From Bryobacter aggregatus MPL3 (GTDB lineage Bacteria; Acidobacteriota; Terriglobia; Bryobacterales; Bryobacteraceae), in the NCBI RefSeq assembly GCF_000702445.1, contig NZ_JNIF01000003.1, forward strand, positions 2,852,001 through 2,916,000: 64,000 nt of DNA, written 5' to 3'. The notes below the pieces were generated by a model. That model did no database searches and had not been told where the DNA came from. It saw nothing but the letters and a program-made list of their open reading frames with translations. Made by a program: the position numbers and the translations under genes. This document shows positions 45,754 through 60,946 of the stretch, piece by piece; the stretch's first letter is position 1, and each line of letters begins with the position of its first letter.

Positions 45754-45763
45754 AGACCGCCTC

Positions 45764-46561: not shown

Positions 46562-46651
46562 GGAGAGGTGGCCGAGCGGTTTAAGGCGCACGCTTGGAAA
46601 GCGTGTGTACGAGAAATCGTACCGTGGGTTCGAATCCCACCTTCTCCGCCA
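46562..46651 (+). tRNA. tRNA-Ser, anticodon GGA
   Basis: 90-base class II tRNA. The acceptor arm GGAGAGG pairs with CTTCTCC (one G-U pair) and the CCA end is encoded. The anticodon loop TTGGAAA in a CACGC/GCGTG stem gives anticodon GGA, reading UCC and UCU serine codons. The long variable arm (GTACGAGAAATCGTAC) and the T arm GTGGG TTCGAAT CCCAC are canonical. The gene stands alone between the exported protein and the convergent ribBA gene. Confidence 0.97.
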
Positions 46652-46665
46652 TTCTTCCCAGAATG

Positions 46666-47802
46666 CTAAGAGATCCGAAGCTCCCGTCTCCCCGTAATCT
46701 CCAGCCCAAAACCTTCCAGCCCTACCGCCCGTAACGGCGAATTCGTCAGCAACTCAATCCTCTGTAAGTTCAAATCGCGCAGGATCTGTGCACCAATGCC
46801 GACCTGGTGCTGCATCTTTTTACCGCCATCGTGGCTTTGTATTTGCCGTGTATGCGGCAAAAGCTTTCCTGTGCCCTCTTCGCGGTTCCGCAAGCGATCC
46901 TCATTGCCGTGGTGCAGGTAGACAAGCACGCCGCGGCCTTGGGCCGCAATGACACGCATCGACTCATCGAGTAGGGCACGGCAATCGCAAGCTCGACTTC
47001 CGAACAGGTCACCGAAGGGACAGTGAGAATGCATGCGAACGAGCACCGGATCCTGGCCGCTGATGTCGCCGCAGACCAGTGCGGTGTGCATGTCCTGATC
47101 GAGCGAATTCTCGTAAACATAGAGCTGCATGGGGCCATGCGCCGTTTCAAGTGGGCCTTGGCTAAAGCGCCGCACATAGCTCTCATTCTTCAGGCGATAG
47201 CGGATGAGGTCGGCGACTGAGATCAGCTTGAGATCGTGGGTGCGGCAGTATTCGCGGAGCTCCGGCACGCGGGCCATCGTGCCGTCTTCATTCATGATTT
47301 CGCAAATGACGCCGGCGGGCTTGCGCCCGGCGAGCCGTGACAAATCGACGGAGGCTTCGGTTTGGCCGGCGCGCACGAGCACACCGCCTTCCTGTGCCCG
47401 GAGCGGAAAGACGTGGCCGGGGCGAGCAAGATCTTCCGGACGGCAATCGTCGGTGACCGCGAGTTGAATGGTGTGGGCGCGGTCGGCGGCGCTGATCCCG
47501 GTGGTGACGCCTAGCTTCGCGTCGATCGATTCGGTAAACGCAGTGCCGAAATTGGAGGTGTTGATCCGGGACATCAGTGGCAGATGCAGACGGTCGCAAC
47601 TTTCTCCAGATAGGGCGAGGCAAATCAAACCGCGGCCATGGACCGCCATGAAATTAATCAGGTCTGGGGTGACCGCGTCGGCGGGCAATGCCAGGTCGCC
47701 CTCATTCTCGCGGTCTTCGTCGTCAACGATGACGACCATCCTGCCAGCCCGGAAATCTTCGATTGCGGACTCAATGGAATCGAACGACATGTGTCCTTTC
47801 AT
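46666..47802 (-). CDS. ribBA: 3,4-dihydroxy-2-butanone-4-phosphate synthase fused to a degenerate GTP cyclohydrolase II domain
   Basis: 378 residues. The N-terminal RibB half is intact ([35 protein letters not shown]) and should make dihydroxybutanone phosphate from ribulose phosphate. The C-terminal half keeps the three zinc cysteines of GTP cyclohydrolase II ([18 protein letters not shown]). It lacks the RQEGR-IG-L block and the segment that carries Tyr105, Asp126 and Arg128 of the E. coli enzyme, reading [10 protein letters not shown] and [12 protein letters not shown] instead. The fold end ([19 protein letters not shown]) is preserved. The second activity is probably lost, as in RibB hybrids called RibBX; no other ribA is in the window. 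Confidence 0.9.
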
Positions 47803-48005
47803 TGTCGCTGAGAGCGGAGTCTGACGGGGATGCGAAAAAGCCGGTCACATGATTTTGAAATTTATATCTTGTTTGTTTTCAATATGAATTTTGATTTTCA
47901 TGAAATTGCGTGAAAGTCAATGGGTAGGATTTTTGTGGGGCGTGGGTCCCGAGCGAAAGCCACATATTGAAAGTTACGAAAGATCTGTTTCGTATTCGAG
48001 GTGAA
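47803..48005. promoter_or_regulatory. AT-rich spacer between ribBA and the phage-structure cluster
   Basis: About 200 bases with a strikingly AT-rich core (47850-47930) compared with the GC-rich neighbours. It contains a 10-base palindrome TTTCATGAAA (47896-47905) and an imperfect dyad around it (CAATATGAA ... TTCATGAAATTG). It must carry the ribBA promoter on one side and the promoter for the twelve-gene cluster on the other. No FMN riboswitch consensus is visible before ribBA. A GAGG ribosome site precedes the portal gene ATG at 48006. Confidence 0.4.
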
Positions 48006-49403
48006 ATGACTTACACGGAAATCGCGGATGCGATCCAGATGCATCCTCACTACAGAAGCTGGCAGACCAGCTTGGAGATGTACAAAGATCTCTACTCGGG
48101 CGGCGCTCAAATGAAGGCTAAGGCTTCGAACTACCTGTATCGACGGCATCGGGAGCCTGCCGAAATCTACCACGAGAGAGTGAGCCGCGCCTTTTATGAA
48201 AACTACCTCGGTTCGATCATTGACTGGTATGCCTCGACTCTGTTTCGTCACGAACCCATTCTTACGGTGGAAGATACGAGCCGGAGATCCAGTAAATACT
48301 ATTTTGAATTTTTTGAAGATTGCGATCGGAATGGCGTTGGTATTACGGATTTTCTTCGTCGGCGTTTTACGGATGCTTTGATCTTCGGGCGCTCCTTTAC
48401 GGCGCTTGAATTTCCCAAAAGGGAGACCAGCTTCAGCTCGCGGCTGGAAGAAGAGGCCATTGGAGCGGATCGTGGCTATCTGACCGCCATCCATCCTTCG
48501 GACGTCGTGAACTGGAGTTACAACACAGAAGGCAAGTTGACGCTGCTGACGGTGCGCTTGCAGGGACCCAGCTATGCAAGCATCTTTCAGCCCACCAATG
48601 AGTCTTCCCGTTACCTCATCTATACCGAGACCGAGTACATCATCGTTGAACTGGATGGGACAGACGAGAAGCTCCAGGTAAAAGAGCGTGGGCCACACGC
48701 CTGCGCCTCTGAAGAGCGGTTGCCTGTCTTTGACATCACGCTGAGCGATGGCCTCTGGCTAATGAACAAGGCTGCGCATCTGCAGTTGGAGCACTACAAC
48801 AAGTCAAACTCGCTGGCTTGGTCGCTCGGGATGGCGTTGTATGCGACGCCGGTGATCTATAGCAAGCGCGATTGGCGCGAGACACTCGGCGAGTCCTATT
48901 ACATTCATCTCGATCCCGAAGACAAATTCGGCTGGACGGAGCCGGAAGGAAATGTCTACCGCATTGCGATCGAGAACCTGAACCGTCTGCAGGAAGAAAT
49001 CTACCGCACCTGTTATGTGATGGGGCAGTCCCGGAGTTGGCTCTCCGGAGCGGCGCAAGTGAGCGGAAGCAGCAAGCGTGCTGACTATCAGATCACGCAG
49101 GAAGTGCTTCGTGCTTATGGCGATTCCGTCAAGGACATGCTGAAGCGCCTGCTCCAAACTCTCATCCGGGTGCGCAAGGATGATCTCCGAATCTCAGTGT
49201 CCGGATTGGACGAATTCGAGGTCGGAGAGTTTAACGAAGAACTCGATGAAGCGCAGAAGCTTTTCAACATGGGGCTCAATTCCAAGACCTTCCGCAAACA
49301 GGCGTACAAGAAGCTTGCCTTCAAGTTCCTGGCGGATATCAACGAGACCACCAAAGAGAGGATTGCGTCGGAGATCGAGGAGCAAATCGACAAAACCAGT
49401 TAG
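48006..49403 (+). CDS. Phage portal protein (DUF4055-like)
   Basis: 465-residue protein of the portal type: an N-terminal helical part (HPHYRSWQTSLEMYKDLYSGG), FYENYLGSIIDWYASTLFRHEP, and an acidic C-terminal helix region (LDEFEVGEFNEELDEAQ). Portals form the dodecameric ring through which DNA enters the head. A TTG at 47967 is also in frame, but ATG 48006 has GAGG at good distance. The gene that normally precedes it, the terminase large subunit, is absent; the upstream neighbour is ribBA on the other strand. First gene of the cluster. Confidence 0.8.
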   Translation: MTYTEIADAIQMHPHYRSWQTSLEMYKDLYSGGAQMKAKASNYLYRRHREPAEIYHERVSRAFYENYLGSIIDWYASTLFRHEPILTVEDTSRRSSKYYFEFFEDCDRNGVGITDFLRRRFTDALIFGRSFTALEFPKRETSFSSRLEEEAIGADRGYLTAIHPSDVVNWSYNTEGKLTLLTVRLQGPSYASIFQPTNESSRYLIYTETEYIIVELDGTDEKLQVKERGPHACASEERLPVFDITLSDGLWLMNKAAHLQLEHYNKSNSLAWSLGMALYATPVIYSKRDWRETLGESYYIHLDPEDKFGWTEPEGNVYRIAIENLNRLQEEIYRTCYVMGQSRSWLSGAAQVSGSSKRADYQITQEVLRAYGDSVKDMLKRLLQTLIRVRKDDLRISVSGLDEFEVGEFNEELDEAQKLFNMGLNSKTFRKQAYKKLAFKFLADINETTKERIASEIEEQIDKTS

Positions 49404-49412
49404 GAGACTGCA

Positions 49413-49988
49413 ATGGATTCCAGCGAAGAATCGAATTCGCAAGAACCCACCGTGAATGACCTGAAAAAGTTGGTTCACGAGGTGTTCGAGGAATATCACA
49501 ACGTCCAGACGAAGCGGACGGAACCAGCTTATAAGGCCGAACTCGAGGAAGAGCGCCGCAAGCGCGAATCCATGGAGAAGCGGCTGAACGAGTTGGTTGA
49601 GGAGAACCGACGCACGAAGGTCCGGGCCGAAACGATGGAACGCGAAACTCTGATCAAGAGCGAACTCCAGCGGCTCGGCGTCGCGAAAATCGACCTGGCC
49701 TTCAAAGCTGTCAAAGACGAAATCCAACGGGAGACGGATGGAACTCTGCACGCGCGCAGCTCAGAGGGGCCAGTGCCTGTGCCAGAGTTTCTGCGGAAGT
49801 TTGTGGATGAGAATCCGGAACTGCTTCCGGCCCGGAATCTGGGAGGCAGCGGCACGTTAACCAGTGGCCGTGGCTCCCAAAACGCACCTGGGATCGATAT
49901 CGACTCGATTCGGCCCGGGATGAACAAAGATGATCTGGCCCGCGTACGCAGAGAAATTGCGCGCGTTGCTGGCCTGCTGGTGGACTAA
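49413..49988 (+). CDS. Scaffold-like coiled-coil protein of the phage cluster
   Basis: 191 residues, very charged and helical (residues 15-90 rich in Glu, Arg and Lys: LEEERRKRESMEKRLNELVE). The middle and C-terminus (VPVPEFLRKFVDENPELLPA, IDSIRPGMNKDDLARVRREI) look like the coat-binding part of capsid scaffolds. Position between portal and coat protein is where phages encode the internal scaffold. Good GGAG ribosome site. The scaffold role is inferred from composition and position. Confidence 0.65.
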   Translation: MDSSEESNSQEPTVNDLKKLVHEVFEEYHNVQTKRTEPAYKAELEEERRKRESMEKRLNELVEENRRTKVRAETMERETLIKSELQRLGVAKIDLAFKAVKDEIQRETDGTLHARSSEGPVPVPEFLRKFVDENPELLPARNLGGSGTLTSGRGSQNAPGIDIDSIRPGMNKDDLARVRREIARVAGLLVD

Positions 49989-50016
49989 CTCAAATTACTT
50001 CTAAGGAAAACAAAAC

Positions 50017-50925
50017 ATGCCTTCTATCACTTCTTCCAATCTCGCGAACGCCATCGTCAAGCTGGTTGCCGCTGATGCGCTGCCGGCCCTGATGGGCAAC
50101 TTGGTCATGGGCAATCTGGTCAATCGTGACTTTGAACCGACACTGGCCAAAGCCGGCGACACGGTGAACGTTCCGGTGCCTCCGTCGCTGGTGGCCAACA
50201 ATATTGCGGAAGGCGGTACTGTTACGCCGCAGAATCCGAGCCTCGGCAATGCGCAGATTGTCCTGAATACGCATGCGGAAGCGACCTTCCAGATCCCCGA
50301 TGTCACTAAGGTGGTGGCGGTTCCTGATCTTCTCAAGCTGTATATGGAACCGGCGATCATCGCGTTGGCCGAGCGGGTGGAGACCGATCTGTTGGGTTTG
50401 GCCACGAGCTTCACCACGAACACTCCTCTCGGGACCACCGGCACGCCGCTCACCGAACAGGTGGTGGATGACGCGGAAACGGCGTTGTTCAATGCAAAAG
50501 TGGCTGCCAGCATGCAGAAGTACATGGTGGTCGATGCTGCAGGGTACTCGGCGCTGCGCACCAACCCGCGCTTCAGCGAGTATTCAAAGGCGGGCGACGC
50601 TGGATTGCAGGCCTTGATCGATGGCCACATCGGCCGCTTGAAGGACTTCTATGTCTTCCGTTCGCAATTCATCAAGAAGAGTGGCAGTCCGGCGACGACC
50701 TACAATCTCGCCTTTGCGAAAAATGCACTGGGGCTGGCGATTCGCCGCCTGCCGCAGCCGCTTCCGGGGACGGGCGCCATCGCTGAGTATGCTGAACTGG
50801 GCAACTTCGGCGTACGTGTTGTGATGAGCTATCAACCCGATACGCTGTCGCAGCAGTTTACGGTCGACATCCTCTACGGTACCGGGATCCTTCGCAACAA
50901 CCACGGCGTGCAGGTGCGCAGCTAA
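50017..50925 (+). CDS. Major capsid protein, P22 coat-like
   Basis: 302-residue protein. The start (PSITSSNLANAIVKLVAADA), the NLVNRDFEPTLAKAGDTVNV region and QYSKAGDAGLQALIDG-type segment (EYSKAGDAGLQALIDGHIGR) match the P22 coat protein family, which has the HK97 fold with an insertion domain. The C-terminus (ELGNFGVRVVMSYQPDTLSQ) is also typical. Strong AAGGA ribosome site, and an intrinsic terminator directly follows the gene. P22-type coats use a scaffold and no maturation protease, which fits the absence of a protease gene. Confidence 0.82.
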   Translation: MPSITSSNLANAIVKLVAADALPALMGNLVMGNLVNRDFEPTLAKAGDTVNVPVPPSLVANNIAEGGTVTPQNPSLGNAQIVLNTHAEATFQIPDVTKVVAVPDLLKLYMEPAIIALAERVETDLLGLATSFTTNTPLGTTGTPLTEQVVDDAETALFNAKVAASMQKYMVVDAAGYSALRTNPRFSEYSKAGDAGLQALIDGHIGRLKDFYVFRSQFIKKSGSPATTYNLAFAKNALGLAIRRLPQPLPGTGAIAEYAELGNFGVRVVMSYQPDTLSQQFTVDILYGTGILRNNHGVQVRS

Positions 50926-50949
50926 CTGCACCGAACGACCTAAGGTATG

Positions 50950-50986
50950 GGCCGGTTCTTCACAAGAAGAACCGGCCTTTTCTTTT
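50950..50986 (+). terminator. Rho-independent terminator after the major capsid gene
   Basis: GGCCGGTTCTT (50950-50960) and AAGAACCGGCC (50967-50977) form an 11-base stem with a six-base loop, followed by TTTTCTTTT (50978-50986). It lies 24 bases after the capsid stop codon and before the next ribosome site. It should partly stop transcription and so favour high expression of the coat protein over the tail genes. Confidence 0.9.
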
Positions 50987-51006
50987 CCAGGAAAAGCTCA
51001 GAAAGC

Positions 51007-51771
51007 GTGAATCCCATGGCCTTACTGAAAGATCAACCCATCAGTTGTCTGACCGAATGGATGGCTTATGACTCCAAGCTTTCCATTCTCTCCGCGCAAG
51101 AAACGACTTCGATCGAGGCAAAGTCGTGCCTTGCGCAAAATGAAATTGAAACACAGGTGACCAGCTTCCTGCTGCGCCATAGCGGACTTGGTGAGCTTGC
51201 TGCGCGCCAACTGCTCTCGAAGGTGACGGTGACAGAAGCGCTCCATCGCTGGCATAGCATGCTGACACTGAGCCTGTTCTACGCAGATCTGGCCTCGCTG
51301 CAGAACAGCGCCCTGCATCGAGAACAATCCCGCTATTACGAAACAAAGGCCGATGCGGCTCAGGATCAGTTGTTCGATACAGGACTGGGCATTGTGAACT
51401 TTCCAATCTCCAAGGCTCCTGTGCCCTTGATCACGTCGCAGCCAGGGACCAATCCACTTCGCATTTTGCGGGGACGGATTCGCTATCTCGACGGCAATGG
51501 GGCGATGGGGGCGCCGAGCTCGGACTTTCTTCTGGACATGTCGAATGGGCAGCAACTCACGCTTGCTCTGGATTCCTTGCCGGACCGGGTGATTGGTTGG
51601 CTCCTCTATGTGGGAGACGAATCGAATCTGTTTTATCTGGCGACGGCATCGCCTGTGACCAGCTCGGTGACGCTTACCGCAGAAATGCTGAACCAGCAGA
51701 CGGAGCGTCTCGATCTTGCCTCGCAAGCCGCGGACCGTTTCATCCGTTACTCCACGGAACTCTGGAGATAA
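51007..51771 (+). CDS. Head-tail connector-like protein of the phage cluster
   Basis: 254 residues from GTG 51007 (ATG 51016 is also possible); an upstream in-frame start at 50947 is rejected because it lies within the terminator. The N-terminal 140 residues are helical (MAYDSKLSILSAQETTSIEA, GELAARQLLSKVTVTEALHR), as in gp6-type adaptor proteins. The C-terminal part is a strand-rich domain (ILRGRIRYLDGNGAMGAPSS, LTLALDSLPDRVIGWLLYVG). Position after the coat gene fits an adaptor. The beta domain is unusual for adaptors. Confidence 0.5.
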   Translation: MNPMALLKDQPISCLTEWMAYDSKLSILSAQETTSIEAKSCLAQNEIETQVTSFLLRHSGLGELAARQLLSKVTVTEALHRWHSMLTLSLFYADLASLQNSALHREQSRYYETKADAAQDQLFDTGLGIVNFPISKAPVPLITSQPGTNPLRILRGRIRYLDGNGAMGAPSSDFLLDMSNGQQLTLALDSLPDRVIGWLLYVGDESNLFYLATASPVTSSVTLTAEMLNQQTERLDLASQAADRFIRYSTELWR

Positions 51772-51774
51772 GCG

Positions 51775-52266
51775 ATGAACCTTTCCAGTCGAGCGGTGGA
51801 AGCCGCAAAGAGCATGCTGAGCGGGGAGGCAGGGCTGAAGGTCAGTGTAGAGGCGATCCAGGAGCTTCGTGGCAATCTCGAGGCGGAAACACGATTCGAG
51901 GTGAATACCGACTATTGGCACAGCAAGGTCACGGAGCGAGTTCCTGCCAATCGTTTCCCGAAAATCTCGGTGTCGCTGGTGAAACTCAAGCGCGGCCAAC
52001 AGGAAAAACTGACCGACAGCAGCGCGCTGGCGACCTTGCAAATCGAAGTGATCAATACGCTCGAGAGGGCGGATTTACTGCAATCGCAACTCAGCGACTT
52101 TGTTGATGCGATCTGTGACGTTCTCAATCGCAACTCAGGGCTTTGGAGCCAGGGCGTGTTCTACGCCGGAGGCTTCACCGTCGAAATCCAGCCCGTCTCC
52201 AAAGGCGGTCTCAACTATGTGCAAAACGCAACCATCACCTTTGAAATTCATCTCTGGCAGGACTAA
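51775..52266 (+). CDS. Tail completion/terminator-like protein of the phage cluster
   Basis: 163 residues starting three bases after the previous stop. The residues KVTERVPANRFPKISVSLVK and GGLNYVQNATITFEIHLWQD give the strand-helix-strand character of tail-terminator proteins, which cap the finished tail tube. Assigned by position between connector and tail tube and by size; sequence identity to known families is not visible to me. Confidence 0.5.
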   Translation: MNLSSRAVEAAKSMLSGEAGLKVSVEAIQELRGNLEAETRFEVNTDYWHSKVTERVPANRFPKISVSLVKLKRGQQEKLTDSSALATLQIEVINTLERADLLQSQLSDFVDAICDVLNRNSGLWSQGVFYAGGFTVEIQPVSKGGLNYVQNATITFEIHLWQD

Positions 52267-52268
52267 TC

Positions 52269-53432
52269 ATGGCAAACGAATACATCGCGACACTCTCGAA
52301 TCGCATCTTCATCAAATCGGAGGTCGATGACCCCGAGGTCGGCAACATGGAAGCAGCGCAACTGGCCCCAGTCACTGCCTTCCAGGTGAATAGCAATCGC
52401 AAGCGCATCTTCCGCCGGGACAAGACGGGTTATCGATCGGACAATCCTGTGGTGGGGCCGCAGCGAGAACTGATCGAGTTCAGCATGGACGCCTATGGTA
52501 CCGGCTGGACCGGAGGCACGGAGAAGCCGGCGATTGCTCCTCTTCTCGAAAGTGCTCTTTGCCAAAGCGCTTCTCTTGGTACATCCTATATAGTGCAGTC
52601 TAGCTCTGGTAAGTCTGTTACACTTGCCGCCGACGGGATGTTGAGTGTCGGGATGGGGCTTGCCTTTGGTTCGGAGCTTCGCTTTGTCGAATCGATCTCC
52701 GGGCCGCGCGATTTCACTTTGAATACTGCCTTCAGTGTGGACCTGACGGCGGGCGCAGAACTGGCAGGCTGCGTGAATCTCTCGCTCGGCGATACGCCGA
52801 GTACAATGTCGGTTCTCGACACCTGGGCGCCCAATCAGGCCGTGCAGCGTTTTTTGACGGGGGCGATCTCCGACAAGCTCAGCTTGAAGATCAACAACGA
52901 TTTTCTCGAGATCTCGACCAAGGGCTTTGCTCGGAACCTGGTGGATAGTGTGAGCGGTTCAGTGGGTGCCGATTCCACTTTCCCGGCTGCTCCGCCTGCC
53001 GCTTTGACGAGTACTCCAATTGCAGGCTATCTTGGACAGGCTTTCCTTGGCGTTGCCACTGCTCGCCTTTGCACCCTCACCCAGGCGACGATTCATATCG
53101 ATAACGACATCCAGCCGCGTACGGACGAGTTCGGCTGTTTCAGCACGAAGGGTTTTGTGCTGGGACGCCGGAAGGTCAGTCTCGATCTGACTGTCTTTGA
53201 ACGGAATGACGAACTGAGCCAGGCGCTCTATACGAGAGCGGTGAACAACGAGCCCGTGTCAGTGATGTTGCAGATTGGCAACCAGCCCGGATCGATGTTT
53301 GCAATCTATCTGCCCGCGGTGCTGTTTCCAGTGCCTGCTTTCAACGACGGGCAATCGCGATTGCTCTGGCAGTTCCGCAATGCGGTGGCGCTGGGGATGC
53401 AGAATGACGAAGTCTTTCTGGCGATGAGGTAG
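52269..53432 (+). CDS. Tail tube-like protein of the phage cluster
   Basis: 387 residues, rich in beta strands, starting MANEYIATLSNRIFIKSEVD; the central region (LTLNINNDFLEISTKGFAR-like LKINNDFLEISTKGFARNL) and C-terminal half (KVSLDLTVFERNDELSQALY) repeat a beta-sandwich pattern as in major tail proteins with two domains. It precedes the frameshift chaperone pair, exactly where the tail tube gene lies in siphoviruses. The length is larger than many tube proteins, which suggests an extra domain. Confidence 0.65.
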   Translation: MANEYIATLSNRIFIKSEVDDPEVGNMEAAQLAPVTAFQVNSNRKRIFRRDKTGYRSDNPVVGPQRELIEFSMDAYGTGWTGGTEKPAIAPLLESALCQSASLGTSYIVQSSSGKSVTLAADGMLSVGMGLAFGSELRFVESISGPRDFTLNTAFSVDLTAGAELAGCVNLSLGDTPSTMSVLDTWAPNQAVQRFLTGAISDKLSLKINNDFLEISTKGFARNLVDSVSGSVGADSTFPAAPPAALTSTPIAGYLGQAFLGVATARLCTLTQATIHIDNDIQPRTDEFGCFSTKGFVLGRRKVSLDLTVFERNDELSQALYTRAVNNEPVSVMLQIGNQPGSMFAIYLPAVLFPVPAFNDGQSRLLWQFRNAVALGMQNDEVFLAMR

Positions 53433-53435
53433 GCC

Positions 53436-53813
53436 GTGAAACTCCAATACGAAAAGAACATTGCTTCGGCGGCGATGCCAGGAATTGCTTTTCAGATTCG
53501 CCGCATCTCCCTGGCCCAACGCCTGCGTTTTCTGGCGGAGAACTATGGCCTGATGCAACGGCTGAAGTTCCTCAACGCGGGCGTCGGCCAGGAGCCGCAA
53601 GAGCGAAGTGCGGCGGCTGAACTCGAGATCGATTTGAGCCGCCGGCTGCTTGAAGCTGCTCTGATCTCGACAACCGAAGCCGGGTGCACCAGGCCCGCCG
53701 ACGAGAGCCTCATCCAGTGGTTGTTGGAGGAGGCTCCGACGGAGCTGAGCGTCGAGGTGCTTGCGCACATCGGCGACGAGATGGTGCTGAGCGACCCTAG
53801 ACGAAAAAATTGA
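53436..53813 (+). CDS. Tail assembly chaperone-like protein (upstream frame, G analogue)
   Basis: 125 residues from GTG 53436, mainly helical (ISLAQRLRFLAENYGLMQRL, LLEEAPTELSVEVLAHIGD). It ends at the TGA at 53811, directly after a slippery A AAA AAT. In tailed phages the two tail chaperones lie between tail tube and tape measure genes and are joined by a programmed frameshift; both the position and the slippery sequence fit. Sequence family not recognised. Confidence 0.65.
   Translation: MKLQYEKNIASAAMPGIAFQIRRISLAQRLRFLAENYGLMQRLKFLNAGVGQEPQERSAAAELEIDLSRRLLEAALISTTEAGCTRPADESLIQWLLEEAPTELSVEVLAHIGDEMVLSDPRRKN
53804..53810 (+). promoter_or_regulatory. -1 ribosomal frameshift site A AAA AAT
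   Basis: The heptamer A AAA AAT lies at the very end of the upstream chaperone frame (codons CGA AAA AAT TGA), with the stop codon immediately after it. A -1 slip moves ribosomes exactly into the frame that continues as the 105-codon gene ending at 54127, which has no start other than a TTG directly after the heptamer. Phase, sequence and location all match programmed frameshifting of tail chaperones. Confidence 0.75.
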
Positions 53814-54127
53814 TTGCCGCCTTCCAATACCTGTCCGGTGGAGTCCGGTGGGAGTGCGGCCAATGCAGGGAACGGAAGCTGGAGCAATCTCGTGCTTGTG
53901 CCTTCTTGCAATGCCAGCCGTCGCAGACACCGGTGTGGGCCGGGACCAGCGCGGTTTATTTTCAGTGTCCCGAAAGCGTGCTCGATGGAAGCGTCAGTTA
54001 CTGGATTGCGCTGGAGCGTTGGTGCCGTGTGATGGAAGCCGCCAAGGTGCTGGAGTTTCCGGCGATCGATTGCGATGCGATGACTGCCATTCAGGCAATG
54101 GAAAGAGAAAGACGACATGAGCGATAG
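53810..54127 (+). CDS. Tail assembly chaperone-like extension (downstream frame, T analogue)
   Basis: 105 codons in the -1 frame relative to the upstream gene. Probably expressed as a fusion through the slippery site, giving a G-T-like protein of about 230 residues. It contains several cysteines (WECGQCRERKLEQSRACAFL) that could bind zinc, then a helical end. An independent TTG start without a good ribosome site is the only alternative. It overlaps the next gene by 11 bases. Confidence 0.6.
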   Translation: MIAAFQYLSGGVRWECGQCRERKLEQSRACAFLQCQPSQTPVWAGTSAVYFQCPESVLDGSVSYWIALERWCRVMEAAKVLEFPAIDCDAMTAIQAMERERRHER

Positions 54128-54719
54128 CAACACGAACAGCAGCAATACCGGGGACCGCAGTCTGAGCGATGTCCTCAATAATCTGATCGCACGGCTCGAT
54201 TCTGGCAATGCAGGCGTGAGCGGACAGTTGCAAAGCATCACGAACGCAGCCTCCACGGCCATCAGCGCGGTGACCCAGGGCACTACCATTGCGGCACAGA
54301 CGGGCGCAGTGGGTTCCATGGGGAAAGAGATCGTCAATCTCGTCAATCCGATGAACAACGGGGGATCGACGATGACCAACGTCCTAACTAGCCTCTTTCT
54401 CGGCCCGATCTGGAAGGGTCTGTTCGGCCTCTTCACCGGAGGCGGCGACGATCCTGCTCCCGTGCTGACGAAGTATCAGTTTCCAGACGCGACGGCCACC
54501 AACGTTGCGGCCAGTGCACCGGACGGCAGCCCTGCTCTCACGCGTAGCGATGCCTTTGGTGTGACGCGATCGGCGCCCAATAGCCCTGCCTCGATTCAGG
54601 TCTCCATCCAGGCTCTTGATGCGCGGTCGATTCTCGACCGGAGTGATGACATCGCAAACGCGCTGCGGCAGGCCATGCTCTCCAATCACGAAGTCAATGA
54701 CAGCTTGAGCGAGTTCTAA
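54117..54719 (+). CDS. Short tape-measure-like protein candidate
   Basis: 200 residues, helical at the N-terminus (SDVLNNLIARLDSGNAGVSG, SAVTQGTTIAAQTGAVG) with a hydrophobic middle (VLTSLFLGPIWKGLFGLFTG). The C-terminal IQVSIQALDARSILDRSDDI resembles a block I associate with tail proteins in similar clusters. It occupies the tape-measure position directly after the chaperone pair. A tape measure this short would give a tail of only some tens of nanometres. It may instead be a tail accessory protein, with a true tape measure elsewhere. Confidence 0.5.
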   Translation: MSDSNTNSSNTGDRSLSDVLNNLIARLDSGNAGVSGQLQSITNAASTAISAVTQGTTIAAQTGAVGSMGKEIVNLVNPMNNGGSTMTNVLTSLFLGPIWKGLFGLFTGGGDDPAPVLTKYQFPDATATNVAASAPDGSPALTRSDAFGVTRSAPNSPASIQVSIQALDARSILDRSDDIANALRQAMLSNHEVNDSLSEF

Positions 54720-54721
54720 CG

Positions 54722-55072
54722 ATGACATTCCCAACGCTGATTTCCGGACAGTTGGTGCAATCGAGCACCGTGCGTTCCCAGCCGATCCAACATTGGGAAC
54801 ACCTCTTTGCGGGCCTTGGACGCCAGACCCAGCGCTGGACCAATTCCGACCGCCGCTCCTGGCGGCTCAGCTACAGGGCCTTGAACGGCGACGAGGCGAT
54901 GCGCCTCCGCGCCTTCTACGAATCGATTCCTCTCCAAGGCCTGTTTCACTTTCAGGACCCTTGGACCGGCACAGACTATCCGCACTGCCGGATCCGCGAT
55001 GGGCGCATGGTGATGAGTTGCGATGCGCATGGGCGCTACACCGTTGACCTGGAGATTGAGAATGCCGACTGA
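54722..55072 (+). CDS. Distal tail-like protein of the phage cluster
   Basis: 116 residues: the block SDRRSWRLSYRALNGDEAMR with FYESIPLQGLFHFQDPW is the pattern of small distal tail (Dit-like, DUF2460-type) proteins that build the ring between tube and hub. The spacing to the next gene is a 10-11 base overlap. Starts two bases after the preceding stop. The assignment uses motif similarity from memory and position. Confidence 0.6.
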   Translation: MTFPTLISGQLVQSSTVRSQPIQHWEHLFAGLGRQTQRWTNSDRRSWRLSYRALNGDEAMRLRAFYESIPLQGLFHFQDPWTGTDYPHCRIRDGRMVMSCDAHGRYTVDLEIENAD

Positions 55073-55862
55073 TCCCATCCACTTCCCCTATCTCGACAAC
55101 GGGATGTTGTCGCAGATGCCGGTTCGTCTGGAACTGAATCGCATTGCGCCCGCCAATCGCTTTCTCGATGGCAGTATTCTGTATGCGGCCTCGGACGCCA
55201 AGTTGCAATACAACTGGACCTTGCGCTACGACGATCTAAGTGAAGCCGAGTGGCAGCGCTTCACGGACTTCTTTGCGGCAATCGCCACAGGGAGCGAAGC
55301 CTTCACCTTCTACGATCCGCTCGGCAACCTCCTGGCAGACACGGGCAACTTGGAGTCTTCCTCATGGATTCGGCCCGCGGGCCTGGCCCTCCAGTCTTTC
55401 TCCGATCCTGACGTAGACAAGGCCTACATCGTGACCAACCCGACCAGCGCGCCGCTGGTGCTGTCGCAGGCAGTCAATGTGGCTGGCGGGTTCCAGACCA
55501 GCTTCAGTCTGCTGGTGCGCTGGGCTGGCGGCATGCCCTTTGCGCTGGCCCAATCGGATGGTGCACAGCGCTTGGAGCAGCACTTCCAGGCCACCGGATG
55601 GACGCGCCATTTTGTTGCGATGAAGGGCGTTACTTCTTCAGCCAGCCGCAGCGCAGAGATTGTCGTGCTGCCCACAACCCAACTGATCATCGCCGCGCCG
55701 CAGTTGGAGATTGCCGCTGCTCCCAACGCTTATTCCGAAACGGGAGGGCACGGCGGCGTCTTTCCGCAAGCATGGATCGGGCAGAAGAAACTTGAGCTGC
55801 AAAGCCCCACGCCCGGTGGGCACTCCATCACTCTCCAGATAGAAAGCCTGCGCCAATCATGA
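55062..55862 (+). CDS. Second distal tail-like protein with C-terminal beta-sandwich
   Basis: 266 residues. The N-terminal half has the same pattern as the previous gene (LQYNWTLRYDDLSEAEWQRF, TFYDPLGNLLADTG), so the two probably share a fold. The C-terminal 150 residues add a jelly-roll-like domain (SFSLLVRWAGGMPFALAQSD, GWTRHFVAMKGVT, PQLEIAAAPNAYSETGG), reminiscent of carbohydrate-binding domains. The start is ATG 55062; an upstream in-frame start overlaps further. It overlaps the hub gene by four bases. Confidence 0.6.
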   Translation: MPTDPIHFPYLDNGMLSQMPVRLELNRIAPANRFLDGSILYAASDAKLQYNWTLRYDDLSEAEWQRFTDFFAAIATGSEAFTFYDPLGNLLADTGNLESSSWIRPAGLALQSFSDPDVDKAYIVTNPTSAPLVLSQAVNVAGGFQTSFSLLVRWAGGMPFALAQSDGAQRLEQHFQATGWTRHFVAMKGVTSSASRSAEIVVLPTTQLIIAAPQLEIAAAPNAYSETGGHGGVFPQAWIGQKKLELQSPTPGGHSITLQIESLRQS

Positions 55863-58800
55863 GCCTCTACGAAGCAAAAGAACAGAATGCGGTTCCGGCG
55901 ACGGCGCTGCTTTGCGAACTAAGTCTGGTGGAAGGAACACGGCTCTACTGGGCTACGGCCCGTTGCCAGGATGGTGGCCAGACTTATCAGGCCCGGATTC
56001 ATCCCGATCAGGCCGGAAGCTGGAAGCTGACGAGCGATGTTACTAGCGAAAGCGCCAGCTTCATCTCCCTGACGATTGCCGATGCCGATGGAACCGTCGC
56101 ACAGCTCTTCAAGGCCGGACGTTTGCGCGGCGCCCGGGTTGTGTTCCGCGCTGCTGTTCTGAATGAGCGCGATGTCGAATCGTCAACCGTGATGTTGAGC
56201 GGCATGCTCGATTCTGTGTCTGATCTCGATGGCCAGTCGGCACGCATCAATGTGCTGAGCCGGCTGAGTTCCATTCGCAGCAGCTTCCCGCCAATGCGCA
56301 TCCAGAAGCAATGTTCGTGGATGTTTCCTGCAAATGCGGACGAGCGTGGGGCAGCGCTGAGTTCTGGCGAAGATGGCCGCTATTCGCCGCTCTTTCGCTG
56401 TGGGTATTCGCCCGATCTTCCTGGCGGCGTTGGGACGATGAACGGGAGCGAAGCCTTCACCACTTGTGACTACTCGCGGACGAGTTGCGAGCAGCGCGGC
56501 ATGTTTGCGAAGGACGCCTCGGGCCGCACGACGCAGCGCTTCAGCGGCATCGAGTTTGTTCCTCCCAGCATCATCGTGCGCGGACACGGGGAGTCGACCG
56601 GGCGCATCTCAAACCTGACCTCACTCGACACTCGCTTCAACGATGTGGTGCCGGCCGTGTATGGCACCGGCTGGCTTCAAGCGCCGGTGGTGTTCTCGCG
56701 TAACGATGGCAATCTGACACGCTGCGAAGTGCTGTTGGGGCTGGGCGAGATTGAAGGCGTGGTCAAGGTGATCGCCAACGGCTACGAGATTCCCGAGGGC
56801 ATCACCGGCCAGAACATGACCGGCACCGGCTGGTACAACTTTGTGAGCAAGGGCAATCGCACCGGTGTTCTCAATATGGGCCTGACGGACTCGAATCAGA
56901 ACCCGGTTGGCGACCCTTACGGGAGCATGGCCTATCTGAATCTGGTGGTGCCAAATCGAATCAGTGACGGTAAGAGCAGCCCTAAGGTCGACATCCTGAT
57001 CAAGGGCATGAAGGTGCCGGTGCTGGATGCCGAAGGCACTCTTGTCTCTTACGAGTTCTCGGCGAACCCCGCCTGGATCATCTGCGACATCCTACGCCGC
57101 ACGGGCTGGAAATTGGACGAGCTAGATTTGGCAAGCTTTGGTAGCGCGGCTGCCTTTTGTGCGGAGACGGTGGAGGCGCATGACGCCAACGGCGTGCTGC
57201 GCATCGTCCCGCGATTTGAAACCAATCTTGTCCTCAAGCGCCGCTACAGCGTTGGCGAACTGTTGCGATCTGTTCGCCTGTCGTCGCTGCTCTTTTTGTA
57301 CTTCCAACCCGATGGGCGTTTGGCGATTCGTCCGGAGACAACGATCGCTGGGCAACAGCCCACCAAGTCGCTCGGCAGCAATGCGGTCAGTTCTGTGGCG
57401 GGTGGGTGGCCCACTTATGAATTTGGCGATGGGCTGAATGGCACCACGGGAATTCTGTTGAACGCCAAGCGGGAGCCCGAGTTCCGGGTCTATTCGAAAC
57501 TCAGTCAGGACTCGCCGAATCGCGTCAACTTTGAGATTCAGGATGCGCTGAACGAGTACCAGCAGGACAGCGTTTCGATTGCCGATACGGACGACATCCA
57601 GATGCGCCGTCAGGACATCACGCAGTCGCTGCCTGTCACTGGGGTTCCCAACTTTCCGCAGGCGCAGCGCATCTGCCAGACCTGGTTGAACAAGTCGATT
57701 GCTGGCAATGTCTATCTCGAGTTCCGAACCTCGATCCGCGGCTTTCACATTCGTCCTGGCGATCTCATCGCGATGACCTACGAGCGCTATGGTTTTGAGC
57801 GCACCTTGTTTCGCGTGCTCGAGTTCCAACTGTCGCCGGCTCTCGCCGTGATGAAGGTGATCTGCCAGTTGCATCAGGATCATTGGTATTCCGACAACGC
57901 GCAGATTCGCTATGACAGCTCCCGCCGCTATGCCTGGCGCATCGGGGCTGCGCGCGCGGTCTCCGGTACCAAGCTGGTGGACGGCAAGTATGGGTTCGAT
58001 GCGTCCGAGAGCTTGGCTGTCGATTCCGATGGCGTGCAAAAGTGTGCGCTGCGCATCCCGTTTCGCAGGCCAAAGCCGGAGAGTGGAGCGGCCAGTGGCA
58101 TTCCGCTGGTGAGCTTTGATTACGAGGTGCAATCCACCGGCGGGACGCTCGCGCAGGGCTCGTACTTTTACGGTGTGACTACGGTGGATAGCGAGGGCGA
58201 GGAGAGCGGACTGTCGAGCCTGATTCCGGTTACCATCTCCGGACTCTCGGCCACCAACAAGATCCAGCTCAAAGGCATCAGCTCCGCCGCCGCTACCGAG
58301 ACGATGAATCTCTATCGTGGCGATTCGCCGTATCACATGCTGCGCATCGCGAGCGGCCTCGCTGTCTCCGATACCATCTGGGACGCGGGTGCGGAACCCA
58401 GCAACGATTTGCCTCCCGACCCCAACTACAGTAGCCTCCGCGCCTGGTTTCGGCAGATCTATCTGCTCGATCAGAACGCGACCTCCTGGACAGCCGATAC
58501 CATTGGCCGTACCGGAATGAACTTGCGCGTGGACCGCTGGATCGGCAAGAAGGTGGTCCTCCTTGCCGGTGCCGGCAAGGGGCAGGAACGGGCGATTCTT
58601 TCGAACACGGAAGAGGTGATCCAACTGGCGGGGCGCTGGGATGTATTGCCGGATGCCACCACTAAGTTTGTGATTGTCGAGCCGGGATGGGTGTTGGCAG
58701 CGGAGAGCGATACGGATCTTGTCACGGTCATGCTGCCGCTTTTTACGGCGGCCAGCTTTGAGATAAGCCTGCGCTCGGTAGGCAAGGACGGCTCGGAGCT

Positions 58801-59770
58801 GGATGCGCTCGAGTCGCCCTCGCTGCGCTGGCAGATTGGTGTGGGGTTGACGGGCGGTATCGATGCCGATGTGCCGCCCAAGCCGGCCTTCGGCTTCGCG
58901 ATGATTGAAGAGGGAACGATTTCGATTGGCGGCATTGGTTTTGATTCGCTCGACAATCTGAGCTCGGTCTACATTGGCCAACTCGGCCTTCTGTTCTGGG
59001 ATGAGCTGACCGCTCCGACGCCCTTCAGCCTTGGGGCGGACATCGATGCCGATTCAGAGCTCCTGACCATCGCGGGTCTGGACAGTACTCTGCCCAAAGG
59101 GACAATGATTCAGATTGCAAAGGAACTGATCGAGATCTCAGACGACCCGGATGAGGACAGCACCTATCCCGTGATTCGTGGCCGCTACCAGACAACCGCA
59201 GTTGCGCACGAGAGCGCGCCGCCGGTCTTTGTGCTGACACGCCGCGACATGACGATCCCCTTTGTGCCGGGCTATTTCAACTCGACTTCGGCGGTGGGCT
59301 TCCGCTACAACTTCCGTTTGCCGAATGTCCGTGTTGCCGGCGCCGATCTCACGCTCTTCAATCGCGTCGGCGGCAGCGAAAGGGATGAGGAGAGCTATAC
59401 GATCCTTTCAGACAACGGCGTCCGCACGATGGCTGGCGGGCAGATCGCGATGAGCACCCAAGGCTACCTGGCGATTGAAGCAAACGCCGGGCCGTCCTAT
59501 GTCATCGATCGCGACACCGTGGTTCGCGATGTCTATGCCTATGTGCAGGAGCCGCCGGTGGGCGCGCCGATTGAGATTGTGGTTCTTGTCGATGGCGAAG
59601 CCTACTGCGAACTGACGATTGGCGCTGGTGTCCGCGTGTCCGATGCAGTTAATCGCTTCAACTACCCGGCGCTGCGTTCGGGTGCGACCATTTCCTTCGA
59701 TATCGTGAACGTTCCGCCTGCCGAAAGCGGCACCCCAGGCAAGGATCTGACGGTAATCCTGCAAACCTAA
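55859..59770 (+). CDS. Large tail hub/tip protein, 1303 residues
   Basis: Likely baseplate hub and host-contact protein. Residues 1-270 resemble the DUF2163/BR0599-type hub (TYQARIHPDQAGSWKLTSDV, ADADGTVAQLFKAGRLRGAR, a Cys-containing stretch with FTTCDYSRTSC). Residues about 270-680 resemble the tail-tip domain found in GTA gp15 and phage J-type proteins (ANPAWIICDILRRTGWKLDE). Fibronectin-like segments follow (YFYGVTTVDSEGEESGLSSL), then beta-rich C-terminal domains. The two hub parts are separate proteins in RcGTA but seem fused here. Largest and last gene of the cluster. Confidence 0.7.
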   Translation: MSLYEAKEQNAVPATALLCELSLVEGTRLYWATARCQDGGQTYQARIHPDQAGSWKLTSDVTSESASFISLTIADADGTVAQLFKAGRLRGARVVFRAAVLNERDVESSTVMLSGMLDSVSDLDGQSARINVLSRLSSIRSSFPPMRIQKQCSWMFPANADERGAALSSGEDGRYSPLFRCGYSPDLPGGVGTMNGSEAFTTCDYSRTSCEQRGMFAKDASGRTTQRFSGIEFVPPSIIVRGHGESTGRISNLTSLDTRFNDVVPAVYGTGWLQAPVVFSRNDGNLTRCEVLLGLGEIEGVVKVIANGYEIPEGITGQNMTGTGWYNFVSKGNRTGVLNMGLTDSNQNPVGDPYGSMAYLNLVVPNRISDGKSSPKVDILIKGMKVPVLDAEGTLVSYEFSANPAWIICDILRRTGWKLDELDLASFGSAAAFCAETVEAHDANGVLRIVPRFETNLVLKRRYSVGELLRSVRLSSLLFLYFQPDGRLAIRPETTIAGQQPTKSLGSNAVSSVAGGWPTYEFGDGLNGTTGILLNAKREPEFRVYSKLSQDSPNRVNFEIQDALNEYQQDSVSIADTDDIQMRRQDITQSLPVTGVPNFPQAQRICQTWLNKSIAGNVYLEFRTSIRGFHIRPGDLIAMTYERYGFERTLFRVLEFQLSPALAVMKVICQLHQDHWYSDNAQIRYDSSRRYAWRIGAARAVSGTKLVDGKYGFDASESLAVDSDGVQKCALRIPFRRPKPESGAASGIPLVSFDYEVQSTGGTLAQGSYFYGVTTVDSEGEESGLSSLIPVTISGLSATNKIQLKGISSAAATETMNLYRGDSPYHMLRIASGLAVSDTIWDAGAEPSNDLPPDPNYSSLRAWFRQIYLLDQNATSWTADTIGRTGMNLRVDRWIGKKVVLLAGAGKGQERAILSNTEEVIQLAGRWDVLPDATTKFVIVEPGWVLAAESDTDLVTVMLPLFTAASFEISLRSVGKDGSELDALESPSLRWQIGVGLTGGIDADVPPKPAFGFAMIEEGTISIGGIGFDSLDNLSSVYIGQLGLLFWDELTAPTPFSLGADIDADSELLTIAGLDSTLPKGTMIQIAKELIEISDDPDEDSTYPVIRGRYQTTAVAHESAPPVFVLTRRDMTIPFVPGYFNSTSAVGFRYNFRLPNVRVAGADLTLFNRVGGSERDEESYTILSDNGVRTMAGGQIAMSTQGYLAIEANAGPSYVIDRDTVVRDVYAYVQEPPVGAPIEIVVLVDGEAYCELTIGAGVRVSDAVNRFNYPALRSGATISFDIVNVPPAESGTPGKDLTVILQT

Positions 59771-59785
59771 CTGATACTAGAGAAC

Positions 59786-60946
59786 GTGATCTCTGTTCAG
59801 AATGTATCGAAGCGATACATCACTCAGCCTGGATTTTGGCGCGGCCGCAAGGCGCATAAGGCGGAGGCCCGGAATGAATTCTGGGCCCTGCGCCACGTGT
59901 CTTTCGACGTGCCGAAAGGCGAAGTCTTTGGCCTGGTGGGACCGAATGGAGCAGGGAAGTCGACCCTGCTCCAGGTGGTGGCCGGCATCCTGCAGCCCAC
60001 TGAAGGCCGCGTCCTCACGCAAGGACGCATCAGCGCGCTGCTCGAACTCGGCGCTGGTTTCAATCTCGAATTCACGGGCCGCGAAAACGTCCGTCTCAAT
60101 GCTGAACTGCTTGGCCTCTCCCGCCGCGAAATCGAAGCCGCACTCCCCGCCGTCGAAGACTTTGCTGAACTCGGCCACTTCTTTGATCGGCCCGTTCGCG
60201 AATACTCCACCGGCATGTACGTCCGCCTCGCTTTCTCCGCCGCAATCCACCAACAGCCGGAAACGCTGATCGTTGATGAAGCACTGGCCGTCGGTGACGC
60301 CCGCTTTGCGAACAAGTGCATTCGCCGTCTCGATGAACTCAAGCAGAGCGGCGCGACGATCCTGTTTGTCTCGCACGATCTCGGTATCGTCAAGCGGCTC
60401 TGCACCAGTGCCGCGCTACTGTGGCATGGTGAGATCGCGATCCTGGGCACCCCGAAAGAAATCGCCGATGAGTACTCGCGCCGCGTCCAACAAGGGCTGT
60501 TGCCCGTTTCGGCGAGCGATCCGATAAGCGCTACGGGTACGCGCATCCTATCCGCCTCGCTGCACCTGCCAGGTTCCGAACCTCGCACCCAGTTTGAAAT
60601 CGGCGACACCATCGTTCTCGAGACCGAGGTTGCCGTCGCCCAGCCTGGTACCGAATTCCAGCTCGGCATTCTCATCCGCAACCGCCAGGGCATCGACATC
60701 GCAGGCACCAATACGCAAATTGAAAACACGCCGCTCCGTGTCGATGGACCGGCCCGTGTTCAGGTTCGGGTGAGCTTCCCCTGCCACCTGACGCGAGGCG
60801 ACTACACCGTCACTCTCGCCACACAATCTCCGGACGGAGCCCGCCACGATTGGCGCGATGACTTCCTCGAGTTCCAAGTCCACGACCGTCGCGACTACGC
60901 CGGCAACCTCTGGCTCGATGCTAAGTTTGAATACACAATCCTATGA
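59786..60946 (+). CDS. ABC transporter ATP-binding protein, Wzt-like
   Basis: 386 residues from a GTG. The ATPase domain (1-245) has GPNGAGKSTLLQ, the signature YSTGMYVRLAFSAAI and LIVDEALAVGD. About 130 extra residues at the C-terminus form a strand-rich domain (FEIGDTIVLETEVAVAQPGT, FPCHLTRGDYTVTLATQSPD) as in Wzt proteins, which recognise the O-antigen terminus. No Wzm-type permease is adjacent, which is unusual. It starts 15 bases after the phage hub stop and is coupled to the next gene by a four-base overlap. Confidence 0.88.
   Translation: MISVQNVSKRYITQPGFWRGRKAHKAEARNEFWALRHVSFDVPKGEVFGLVGPNGAGKSTLLQVVAGILQPTEGRVLTQGRISALLELGAGFNLEFTGRENVRLNAELLGLSRREIEAALPAVEDFAELGHFFDRPVREYSTGMYVRLAFSAAIHQQPETLIVDEALAVGDARFANKCIRRLDELKQSGATILFVSHDLGIVKRLCTSAALLWHGEIAILGTPKEIADEYSRRVQQGLLPVSASDPISATGTRILSASLHLPGSEPRTQFEIGDTIVLETEVAVAQPGTEFQLGILIRNRQGIDIAGTNTQIENTPLRVDGPARVQVRVSFPCHLTRGDYTVTLATQSPDGARHDWRDDFLEFQVHDRRDYAGNLWLDAKFEYTIL

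What the first reader, a model, noticed from the sequence alone, without database searches (positions are those of the whole stretch)
48006..59770. Intact phage head-and-tail module without phage lifestyle genes: GTA-like or domesticated particle
Seen: twelve intact plus-strand genes in virion assembly order (portal, scaffold, P22-type coat, connector, completion, tube, frameshift chaperones, short tape-measure candidate, two distal-tail proteins, giant hub), with no integrase, repressor, replication, lysis or terminase gene, set between ribBA and a Wzt-like ABC gene. Known: gene transfer agents such as RcGTA have this gene order, reduced to structural parts, conserved vertically. Inference: this may be a GTA or related particle of Acidobacteria, which I do not know to be described.
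Basis: partly seen in the sequence, partly recalled or inferred. Interest (0 to 1): 0.85.

Follow-up and report, generated by a model that had tools for sequence, protein, structure and literature searches.

The report
Inherited virus-like particle genes, terminase lost
A family of soil and freshwater bacteria (Bryobacteraceae, Acidobacteriota) carries, in most members, a tamed set of phage head-and-tail genes passed down with the chromosome like a gene transfer agent; in the genus of this window the DNA-packing motor gene has been lost, yet the other particle genes are still kept intact by natural selection.

Summary
In detail: twelve intact head-and-tail genes lie at 48006-59770, with no terminase and no phage lifestyle gene found. 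It is not a stray prophage. Its coat gene is in 197 of 237 genomes and 70 of 76 genera of the window's family; 13 of 23 branches of the cluster tree match the host rpoB tree (shuffles: mean 0.18, maximum 3). In the window's genus the genes are under strong purifying selection (dN/dS 0.02-0.15 in the closest pairs). Elsewhere the cluster starts with a terminase large subunit and a likely small subunit. The window's genus lost the large subunit (0 of 8 genomes); so did another genus (2 of 2, on a separate branch) and two further genomes. So this is a candidate gene transfer agent lineage, not described as such in the papers I could search, and the window copy is a terminase-less derivative still under selection. 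Whether it fills its heads with a borrowed motor or not at all is open. A 2025 paper printed a relative as a Bryobacterales "provirus" (PMC11924767); the domesticated reading, co-descent and terminase losses are new here. Particles and DNA transfer are untested.

The parts
48006..49403 (+). portal protein
   Evidence: phrog_145 E 9e-45; ATG at 48006; in 76 of 80 GTDB loci, 3 of the other 4 cut by contig ends; the 76 include all 7 other genomes of the genus, some cut
49413..49988 (+). scaffolding protein candidate
   Evidence: weak phrog_1879 E 0.0085; position between portal and coat; in 78 of 80 loci, 1 cut, 1 absent
50017..50925 (+). major capsid (coat) protein, P22-type
   Evidence: PF11651 E 1e-16, phrog_283 E 2e-42; in 197 of 237 family genomes
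51016..51771 (+). gene 4, conserved gene of unknown family (251 aa), head-tail joining by position only
   Evidence: no Pfam or PHROG match; in 75 of 80 loci, other 5 cut; conserved start in 48 aligned sequences
51775..52266 (+). gene 5, probable tail-completion gene, by position only
   Evidence: no family match; in 72 of 80 loci, other 8 cut
52269..53432 (+). tail tube protein
   Evidence: PF18906 E 3e-8, phrog_290 E 1e-9; in 71 of 80 loci, other 9 cut
53436..53813 (+). tail assembly chaperone, short form (gene 7)
   Evidence: no family match; position and frameshift pairing as in lambda G/GT (recalled comparison); dN/dS 0.098 in the closest pair
53804..53810 (+). slippery heptamer A-AAA-AAT for a -1 frameshift, directly before the gene 7 stop
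   Evidence: in-frame heptamer in 62 of 67 relatives, control
53810..54127 (+). frameshift extension of the chaperone (gene 7b)
   Evidence: open frame; gene 7b found in the -1 frame in all 62 relatives with the heptamer
54117..54719 (+). short tape measure protein candidate (200 aa)
   Evidence: C-terminal match to phrog_3779 E 0.008; conserved C-terminal segment in 23 aligned sequences
54722..55072 (+). distal tail protein 1 candidate
   Evidence: only a sub-threshold match, PF09343 E 0.15; in 64 of 80 loci, other 16 cut
55062..55862 (+). distal tail protein 2 candidate
   Evidence: conserved start at 55062 in 30 aligned sequences; weak phrog_2913 E 0.004
55859..59770 (+). tail hub / tip protein (1303 aa)
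   Evidence: PF13550 E 1e-11, phrog_31 (lambda J type) E 7e-17; weak match to phage baseplate hub chains, E 0.004-0.006
47803..48005 (.). place where other genera have the small and large terminase genes; here only a short gap to ribBA
   Evidence: TerL upstream of the portal in all 16 non-genus loci of 20 and in 62 of 80 GTDB loci, 12 cut, 6 absent; no match in 8 of 8 genus genomes
46666..47802 (-). flank: ribBA, ordinary host gene; next to the cluster only in loci of this genus
59786..60946 (+). flank: ABC transporter ATPase with Wzt C-terminal domain; same neighbour after the hub or TIM gene in four other genera
   Evidence: PF14524 and PF00005

Best explanation
This is a domesticated phage head-and-tail locus that has descended with the chromosome through the window's bacterial family: a new GTA-type lineage. 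In most genera it encodes what a tailed particle needs to assemble and pack DNA (large terminase with intact motor and nuclease residues, small-subunit candidate, portal, scaffold, coat, short tail, hub) but no integrase, replication or repressor gene was found, so the likely product is a particle that packs host DNA by headful and delivers it to kin. In the window's genus the terminase genes, a small gene after the coat and the downstream TIM-barrel gene are missing from the cluster, while the other twelve genes are still selected for. The most likely mechanism here is that portal, scaffold and coat build an empty procapsid, a short tail is added, and, if DNA is packed at all, a terminase encoded elsewhere does it; the only terminase-like genes that the two models used find in this genome are three orphan two-piece cassettes. 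Shown by computation: gene content, conservation, co-descent, selection, frameshift site, terminase loss. Inferred: age, particle production, packaging, transfer, use of the orphan terminases.
For: Coat gene in 197 of 237 family genomes, 70 of 76 genera, but in 2 of 396 of a phylum sample, both in the family, one of them the window's own genome. Same gene order in 20 of 20 fetched relatives as far as contigs reach. 13 of 23 splits shared with rpoB. dN/dS 0.018-0.147 for the 12 genes in the closest pairs. Frameshift heptamer kept in 62 of 67. Terminase beside the portal elsewhere, catalytic residues invariant in 26 of 26. Flanking genes scanned: none for phage lifestyle.
Against: I saw no report of a particle, packaging or transfer for this locus. 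In the window's genus the motor is gone, which a working GTA needs (review PMC11841831, passages). No lysis gene was identified; lysis genes elsewhere were not searched. 40 of 237 family genomes have no coat match, and family f3 has it in 1 of 18. Distances of gene 4, gene 10 and hub follow rpoB only weakly (rho 0.25, 0.31, 0.29; without the genus gene 4 has 44 of 500 permutations as high). The genus stem is long in the cluster tree (rpoB's is long too). The terminase is also gone from one more genus and two scattered genomes, which could mean repeated decline.
Confidence: 0.72

Rival explanations
1. In the window's genus the particle carries no DNA: a capsid-and-tail kept for another use (killing, protein delivery, decoy), its motor lost because it is not needed.
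For: No terminase in the cluster; large-subunit orthologue not found in 8 of 8 genus genomes; all 12 remaining genes under purifying selection; further losses with portal, scaffold and coat kept: genus g265 (2 of 2 genomes) and single genomes of g253 and g257.
Against: Portal and scaffold, needed for DNA filling, stay conserved; coat remains the most conserved gene; orphan terminases exist in every genus genome.
Confidence: 0.25
2. Motor swap: one of the orphan two-piece terminase cassettes packs DNA into these particles in trans.
For: The three phrog_2/PF03237 matches in this genome are all such cassettes, with motor and nuclease motifs by eye; 8 of 8 genus genomes and both g265 genomes have at least one.
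Against: Cassettes are common anyway: 101 of 237 genomes, 31 of 76 genera, so two genera out of two is weak (about 0.17 by chance). G483, which lacks the cluster terminase, has no cassette match at E 1e-30 (89% complete). No single subfamily is shared by all genus members: G001 has one copy, of a subfamily other than L031's. No small subunit was identified beside them. Confidence lowered from 0.30.
Confidence: 0.27
3. A co-resident prophage's terminase fills the particles when induced.
For: Genus g265 member L172 has a related terminase and portal elsewhere (L376, about 34-37% identical).
Against: No other phrog_2 match was found in the window's genome; other terminase families were not all searched, and a few weak matches in other genus members (E 3e-4 to 9e-4) were not examined.
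Confidence: 0.12
4. A defective prophage in slow decay.
For: Four parts are missing in this genus relative to most others (two terminase genes, post-coat gene, TIM gene); the genus stem is long; scattered further terminase losses fit repeated inactivation. Raised from 0.06.
Against: No frame broken in the 12 genes of the window; dN/dS far below 1; co-descent with host; conserved recoding site.
Confidence: 0.08
5. An active temperate phage, repeatedly reintegrated.
For: A 2025 paper lists relatives as proviruses (PMC11924767, section 23 read).
Against: One coat match in most genomes listed, host-like tree, no lifestyle genes found, no att-like repeat of the nearby tRNA-Ser (longest other match in the window 13 bases), narrow host range.
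Confidence: 0.02

Closest known systems
Rhodobacter capsulatus GTA (RcGTA) and other ICTV-recognised GTAs
   Same: Reduced tailed-phage structural cluster, vertical descent with hosts, packaging-head-tail gene order (recalled for RcGTA), no lifestyle genes found; the form in other genera includes a large and a likely small terminase gene
   Different: Coat is P22-type; host phylum Acidobacteriota; no experiment yet; window genus lacks the terminase. Homology to RcGTA genes was not tested directly
Bryobacterales 'provirus group (i)' of PMC11924767 (2025)
   Same: Its named member IMGVR_UViG_639633060_000001 ('Ca. Solibacter usitatus' Ellin6076) carries this cluster from terminase to hub (L397)
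   Different: Described there as proviruses; in the parts read (section 23 and passages; 'gene transfer' and 'domesticated' 0 occurrences) there is no GTA reading. Other group members were not checked
Tailocins / phage tail-like particles (recalled)
   Same: Phage parts kept by bacteria under selection without phage replication
   Different: Here capsid, portal and scaffold genes are kept too
Thermus phage Riverbug and Meiothermus phages MMP7/MMP17
   Same: Best phage matches of the orphan terminase ATPase of L031 (43-48% identity)
   Different: Those are phages; here the terminase pieces stand alone among host genes

Membership tests
Gene transfer agent (features as listed in PMC9662315, section 3 read) | Proteins derived from tailed phages form the particle | tested here: met
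   by significant similarity of portal, coat, tube and hub; particle itself not seen
Gene transfer agent (features as listed in PMC9662315, section 3 read) | Fully endogenised in host genomes | tested here: met
   chromosomal locus between host genes in the window and in the relatives whose flanks were scanned; mostly one coat match per genome
Gene transfer agent (features as listed in PMC9662315, section 3 read) | Mostly vertical inheritance, co-diversifying with hosts | tested here: met
   13 of 23 splits shared with rpoB in 26 genomes; Mantel rho 0.25-0.64
Gene transfer agent (features as listed in PMC9662315, section 3 read) | Packs mostly random host DNA | not testable with these tools
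   needs particles; window genus lacks its own terminase
Gene transfer agent (features as listed in PMC9662315, section 3 read) | Head too small for the whole GTA genome | not testable with these tools
   needs packaged DNA length
Gene transfer agent (features as listed in PMC9662315, section 3 read) | Delivers DNA to other cells | not testable with these tools
   needs a transfer assay
Self-sufficient DNA-packing particle, window's genus | Own terminase large subunit | tested here: not met
   0 of 8 genus genomes with the orthologue; phrog_2 in the window's genome finds only three orphan split cassettes
RcGTA-like family Rhodogtaviriformidae | Clade membership of terminase and coat genes | not tested
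   no tree with RcGTA sequences was built
Active temperate prophage | Integrase, repressor or replication genes, mobility | tested here: not met
   none in the cluster or among the flanking genes scanned; host-like tree. Excision itself not testable

The most novel reading that the evidence does not exclude
In the window's genus, and separately in at least one other lineage, a gene transfer agent has shed its DNA motor and lives on, under selection, as a DNA-free head-and-tail particle: a use of a whole virion that is neither gene transfer nor a headless tailocin. (Continued selection was measured only in the window's genus.)
Probability: 0.25. Interest if true: 0.92.

Novelty: new variant of a known kind. 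Interest (0 to 1): 0.82.

Why it matters
GTAs are recognised from a few lineages (alphaproteobacteria, a sulfate reducer, a methanogen, a spirochaete; PMC9662315, section read), and a review notes that finding new ones by sequence is hard (PMC11841831, passages). A co-inherited cluster in 70 of 76 genera of one bacterial family would add an independent domestication with a P22-type coat and many natural variants. Repeated terminase loss makes a direct test of what selection keeps in such particles.

Tried and rejected
Orphan split terminases as the cluster's original motor: rejected, because they are multi-copy and patchy (21 of 61 relatives, 5 of these weak hits outside the family; 101 of 237) while a different terminase sits beside the portal in other genera. 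As a replacement motor: left open; co-occurrence is not significant given the base rate, and G483 has neither.

Recent integration at the nearby tRNA-Ser: no repeat of the tRNA elsewhere in the window longer than 13 bases. ribBA-to-ABC synteny beyond the genus: ribBA side fails, ABC side holds in four other genera.

Coat-bearing genomes without a terminase match (25 of 197, by comparing the lists by hand): 8 are the genus, G551 is L177. Of 12 of the other 16 looked at, 8 are cut before the place, 2 have a piece of the terminase at the contig end, 2 lack it with room (G483, G508). G486, G498, G561 and G590 were not looked at. Of the 172 with a match, at least G482, G492 and G552 (= L172) have only weak ones.

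Slips and limits: one search had room after the hub in 1 of 80 loci, so the neighbour analysis was redone; one search is used only for ribBA. In one search one genome entered twice (G006 and L138 are the same contig); its self-pair was dropped but it adds duplicate pairs to medians, so I rely on the closest pairs. In one search, 65 of 80 loci had usable portal and coat; genus loci cut before the terminase place were labelled as lacking it on the strength of whole-genome searches; the tool warned of a long branch (L208) near the genus. The small-subunit candidate was found in 47 of 80 (19 absent, 14 cut) with short queries, so misses are likely. In one search three of ten flanking proteins, and four of ten, had no Pfam match. 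Structure prediction was never accepted: the queue was full each time.
Full report
What is there. The plus strand from 48006 to 59770 holds twelve intact genes in tailed-phage order: portal, scaffold candidate, P22-type coat, two unknown genes, tail tube, a tail chaperone candidate with a -1 frameshift extension, a 200-residue tape measure candidate, two distal tail candidates and a 1303-residue hub. Upstream lies ribBA on the other strand, downstream an ABC ATPase with a Wzt domain, a peptidase and an oxidoreductase. The two upstream neighbours at 42805-46525 match no PHROG. G+C over the cluster is 0.54-0.60, in the rest of the window 0.55-0.62.

The frameshift is a strong sign of a working locus. 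The window has A-AAA-AAT at 53804-53810 directly before the stop of gene 7. Of 67 relatives whose gene 7 stop is in the locus, 62 have A-AAA-AAC/T in frame within eight codons of the stop, each with the extension in the -1 frame. Among 1853 ORFs of at least 100 residues on the plus strand of the same loci, 62 have such a heptamer and 61 of these are gene 7.

Distribution. In 61 relatives the coat gene is found in 37: 33 of 37 genomes of the window's family, 2 of 2 of f2, 1 of 18 of f3, 1 of 1 of f4 and 0 of 3 of f5-f7. In the whole family set it is in 197 of 237 genomes and 70 of 76 genera, mostly once. In a phylum sample it is in 2 of 396, both in the window's family, one being the window's genome. 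A scan of GTDB contigs confirmed 193 of 223 stretches; the 80 kept bear acidobacterial titles except two (Arcobacter, Acidimicrobiia), probably mislabelled bins. The nearest titled relative is Bryobacter sp. (92% coat identity); that contig has the length of G002's, so the unnamed family is Bryobacteraceae by inference.

Gene order. In 20 fetched relatives the order portal to hub is the same in all 20 as far as contigs reach (some small genes were not detected with window queries, ORF comparison was printed for 9 of 20). Over 80 GTDB loci no gene from gene 4 to the hub, except the tape gene (2 misses), is absent where the contig has room.

Terminase. In all 16 non-genus loci of the 20 a gene of about 435 residues lies upstream of the portal. 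It is a terminase large subunit: of two tested, both match phrog_2 (E 1e-35 and 3e-36) and PF03237, one also PF17289. Walker A, the acidic pair and three nuclease aspartates are invariant in 26 of 26 (motif names recalled). A small upstream gene (three examples of 89-125 residues) with a conserved C-terminus is a small-subunit candidate; it matches no family. The large subunit is found in 30 of 61 relatives at E 1e-5, two of these weak, and in 187 of 237 family genomes and 67 of 76 genera at E 1e-40, a few weak and perhaps other terminases. It is in 0 of 8 genomes of the window's genus in both searches. In GTDB loci it is present in 62, cut off in 12 and absent in 6: three genus loci, L172 and L177, and L165, which also lacks portal and scaffold and whose genome has the gene elsewhere. 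L172 and L177 are the two genomes of genus g265 (G552 and G551, by contig coordinates). Neither has it at the locus; L172's genome has a 36% relative next to another portal, L177's no match. On a portal plus coat tree of 65 loci the losses in the two genera need two changes. Comparing, 25 of 197 coat-bearing genomes have no terminase match; beyond the 8 of the genus and L177's, 12 of the other 16 were looked at: 8 cut, 2 with a terminase piece at the contig end, 2 truly without it although portal, scaffold and coat are there (G483 of g253, G508 of g257, whose congeners mostly have it). So loss has happened at least four times by taxon, genus-wide twice.

The genus also lacks the roughly 107-residue gene after the coat (absent in 7 of 7 genus loci and 5 of the other 73, 4 of which are cut) and the roughly 900-residue gene with a TIM-barrel domain (PF23845) that follows the hub in 14 of 21 loci with at least 840 bases after it. 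In the three genus loci with room, and in G032, G035 and G036, the ABC gene follows instead; G019 has neither; G029 has TIM then ABC. Whether these genes are elsewhere in the genus was not searched.

Vertical descent. Protein distances of nine cluster genes follow rpoB distances in up to 26 genomes: rho 0.25 (gene 4) to 0.64 (scaffold), permutations as high 0 to 13 of 500; without the genus, 0 to 44 of 500, worst for gene 4 (44) and hub (23). The trees share 13 of 23 inner branches; shuffled labels give a mean of 0.18 and at most 3 in 2000; outside the genus 10 are shared, again at most 3. Trees are quick searches with one support value.

Selection in the genus. In the closest pairs (G003-G007, for the coat G003-G006) dN/dS is 0.018 to 0.147 over the twelve genes, at pS 0.08 to 0.44. 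Of 349 gene pairs in all, 151 are saturated; medians of the usable ones are 0.033 (portal) to 0.242 (gene 7). For comparison the neighbours ABC and pepP have medians 0.173 and 0.254. The genus stem is long in the cluster tree (1.24; median tip elsewhere 0.54) and also in rpoB (0.25; 0.17), so a change of role on that branch is possible, not shown.

Orphan terminases. The three PF03237 and phrog_2 matches in this genome are two-gene cassettes, ATPase then nuclease, overlapping by four bases in two of the three. Of ten neighbours scanned six match, host families such as a molybdopterin enzyme, a sugar dehydrogenase and a sulfatase. All 8 genus genomes have at least one, but so do 101 of 237 family genomes. 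They could serve the particle in trans; nothing here shows it.

Function. In the family at large the simplest reading is a GTA: genes for a particle and for packing, no means found to be a phage, descent with the host. [quoted passage not shown] the candidate here is also short. For the window's genus, a borrowed motor and a DNA-free particle are both open. The experimental GTA features (PMC9662315, section 3 read) cannot be tested here, so I call it a candidate GTA lineage, not a GTA.

In print. Searches for 'gene transfer agent' with Acidobacteria (28 papers, 20 seen in the listing), Bryobacter (2), Acidobacteriota (5) and Solibacter usitatus (3), and broader GTA searches (listings only), showed no paper that by title or start of abstract describes a GTA of this phylum. 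The reviews PMC11841831 and PMC7947584 do not contain 'acidobacteri'. PMC5900883 (passages) counts prophages in 24 Acidobacteria. PMC11924767 (section 23 and passages) reports a Bryobacterales-specific provirus 'group (i)'; its member UViG_639633060 carries our cluster: the held 13487 of 16365 bases start in the terminase and run into the hub (L397). So the element is in print as a provirus. PMC6172770 (passages) sought GTAs in a peat virome by keywords for five known GTA groups and by 16S genes, which would have missed this one. Only open-licence PMC papers were searched.

Noticed in passing
L031, L032, L033 (three loci of the window's genome, outside the window): Orphan split terminase cassettes (separate ATPase and RNase H-type nuclease genes) stand among host genes; the ATPase is in 101 of 237 family genomes, up to ten matches in one (ten candidates scored per genome). 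Why bacteria keep so many is unexplained.
   Followed up: partly
In many the coat gene begins about 3.3-3.6 kb from a contig end.
   Followed up: partly
L074:471-3218 (minus) and equivalents: A gene of about 900 residues with a 'non-contractile tail sheath TIM barrel' domain (PF23845) follows the hub in 14 of 21 loci with room, but not in the window's genus.
   Followed up: partly
L376: Genome of L172 holds a second, divergent terminase plus portal pair (about 34-37% identical), perhaps a true prophage relative of the domesticated cluster.
   Followed up: no
L515 (G483) and L517 (G508): Two more genomes have portal, scaffold and coat but other genes (ABC transporter; PQQ-like enzyme by eye) where the terminase should be.
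   Followed up: partly
46562-46651: tRNA-Ser(GGA) beside ribBA, a typical integration site, but with no repeat longer than 13 bases elsewhere in the window.
   Followed up: yes
59786-62106: The ABC/Wzt gene and M24 peptidase follow the hub in the same order in G036 of another genus, suggesting the same chromosomal place.
   Followed up: partly
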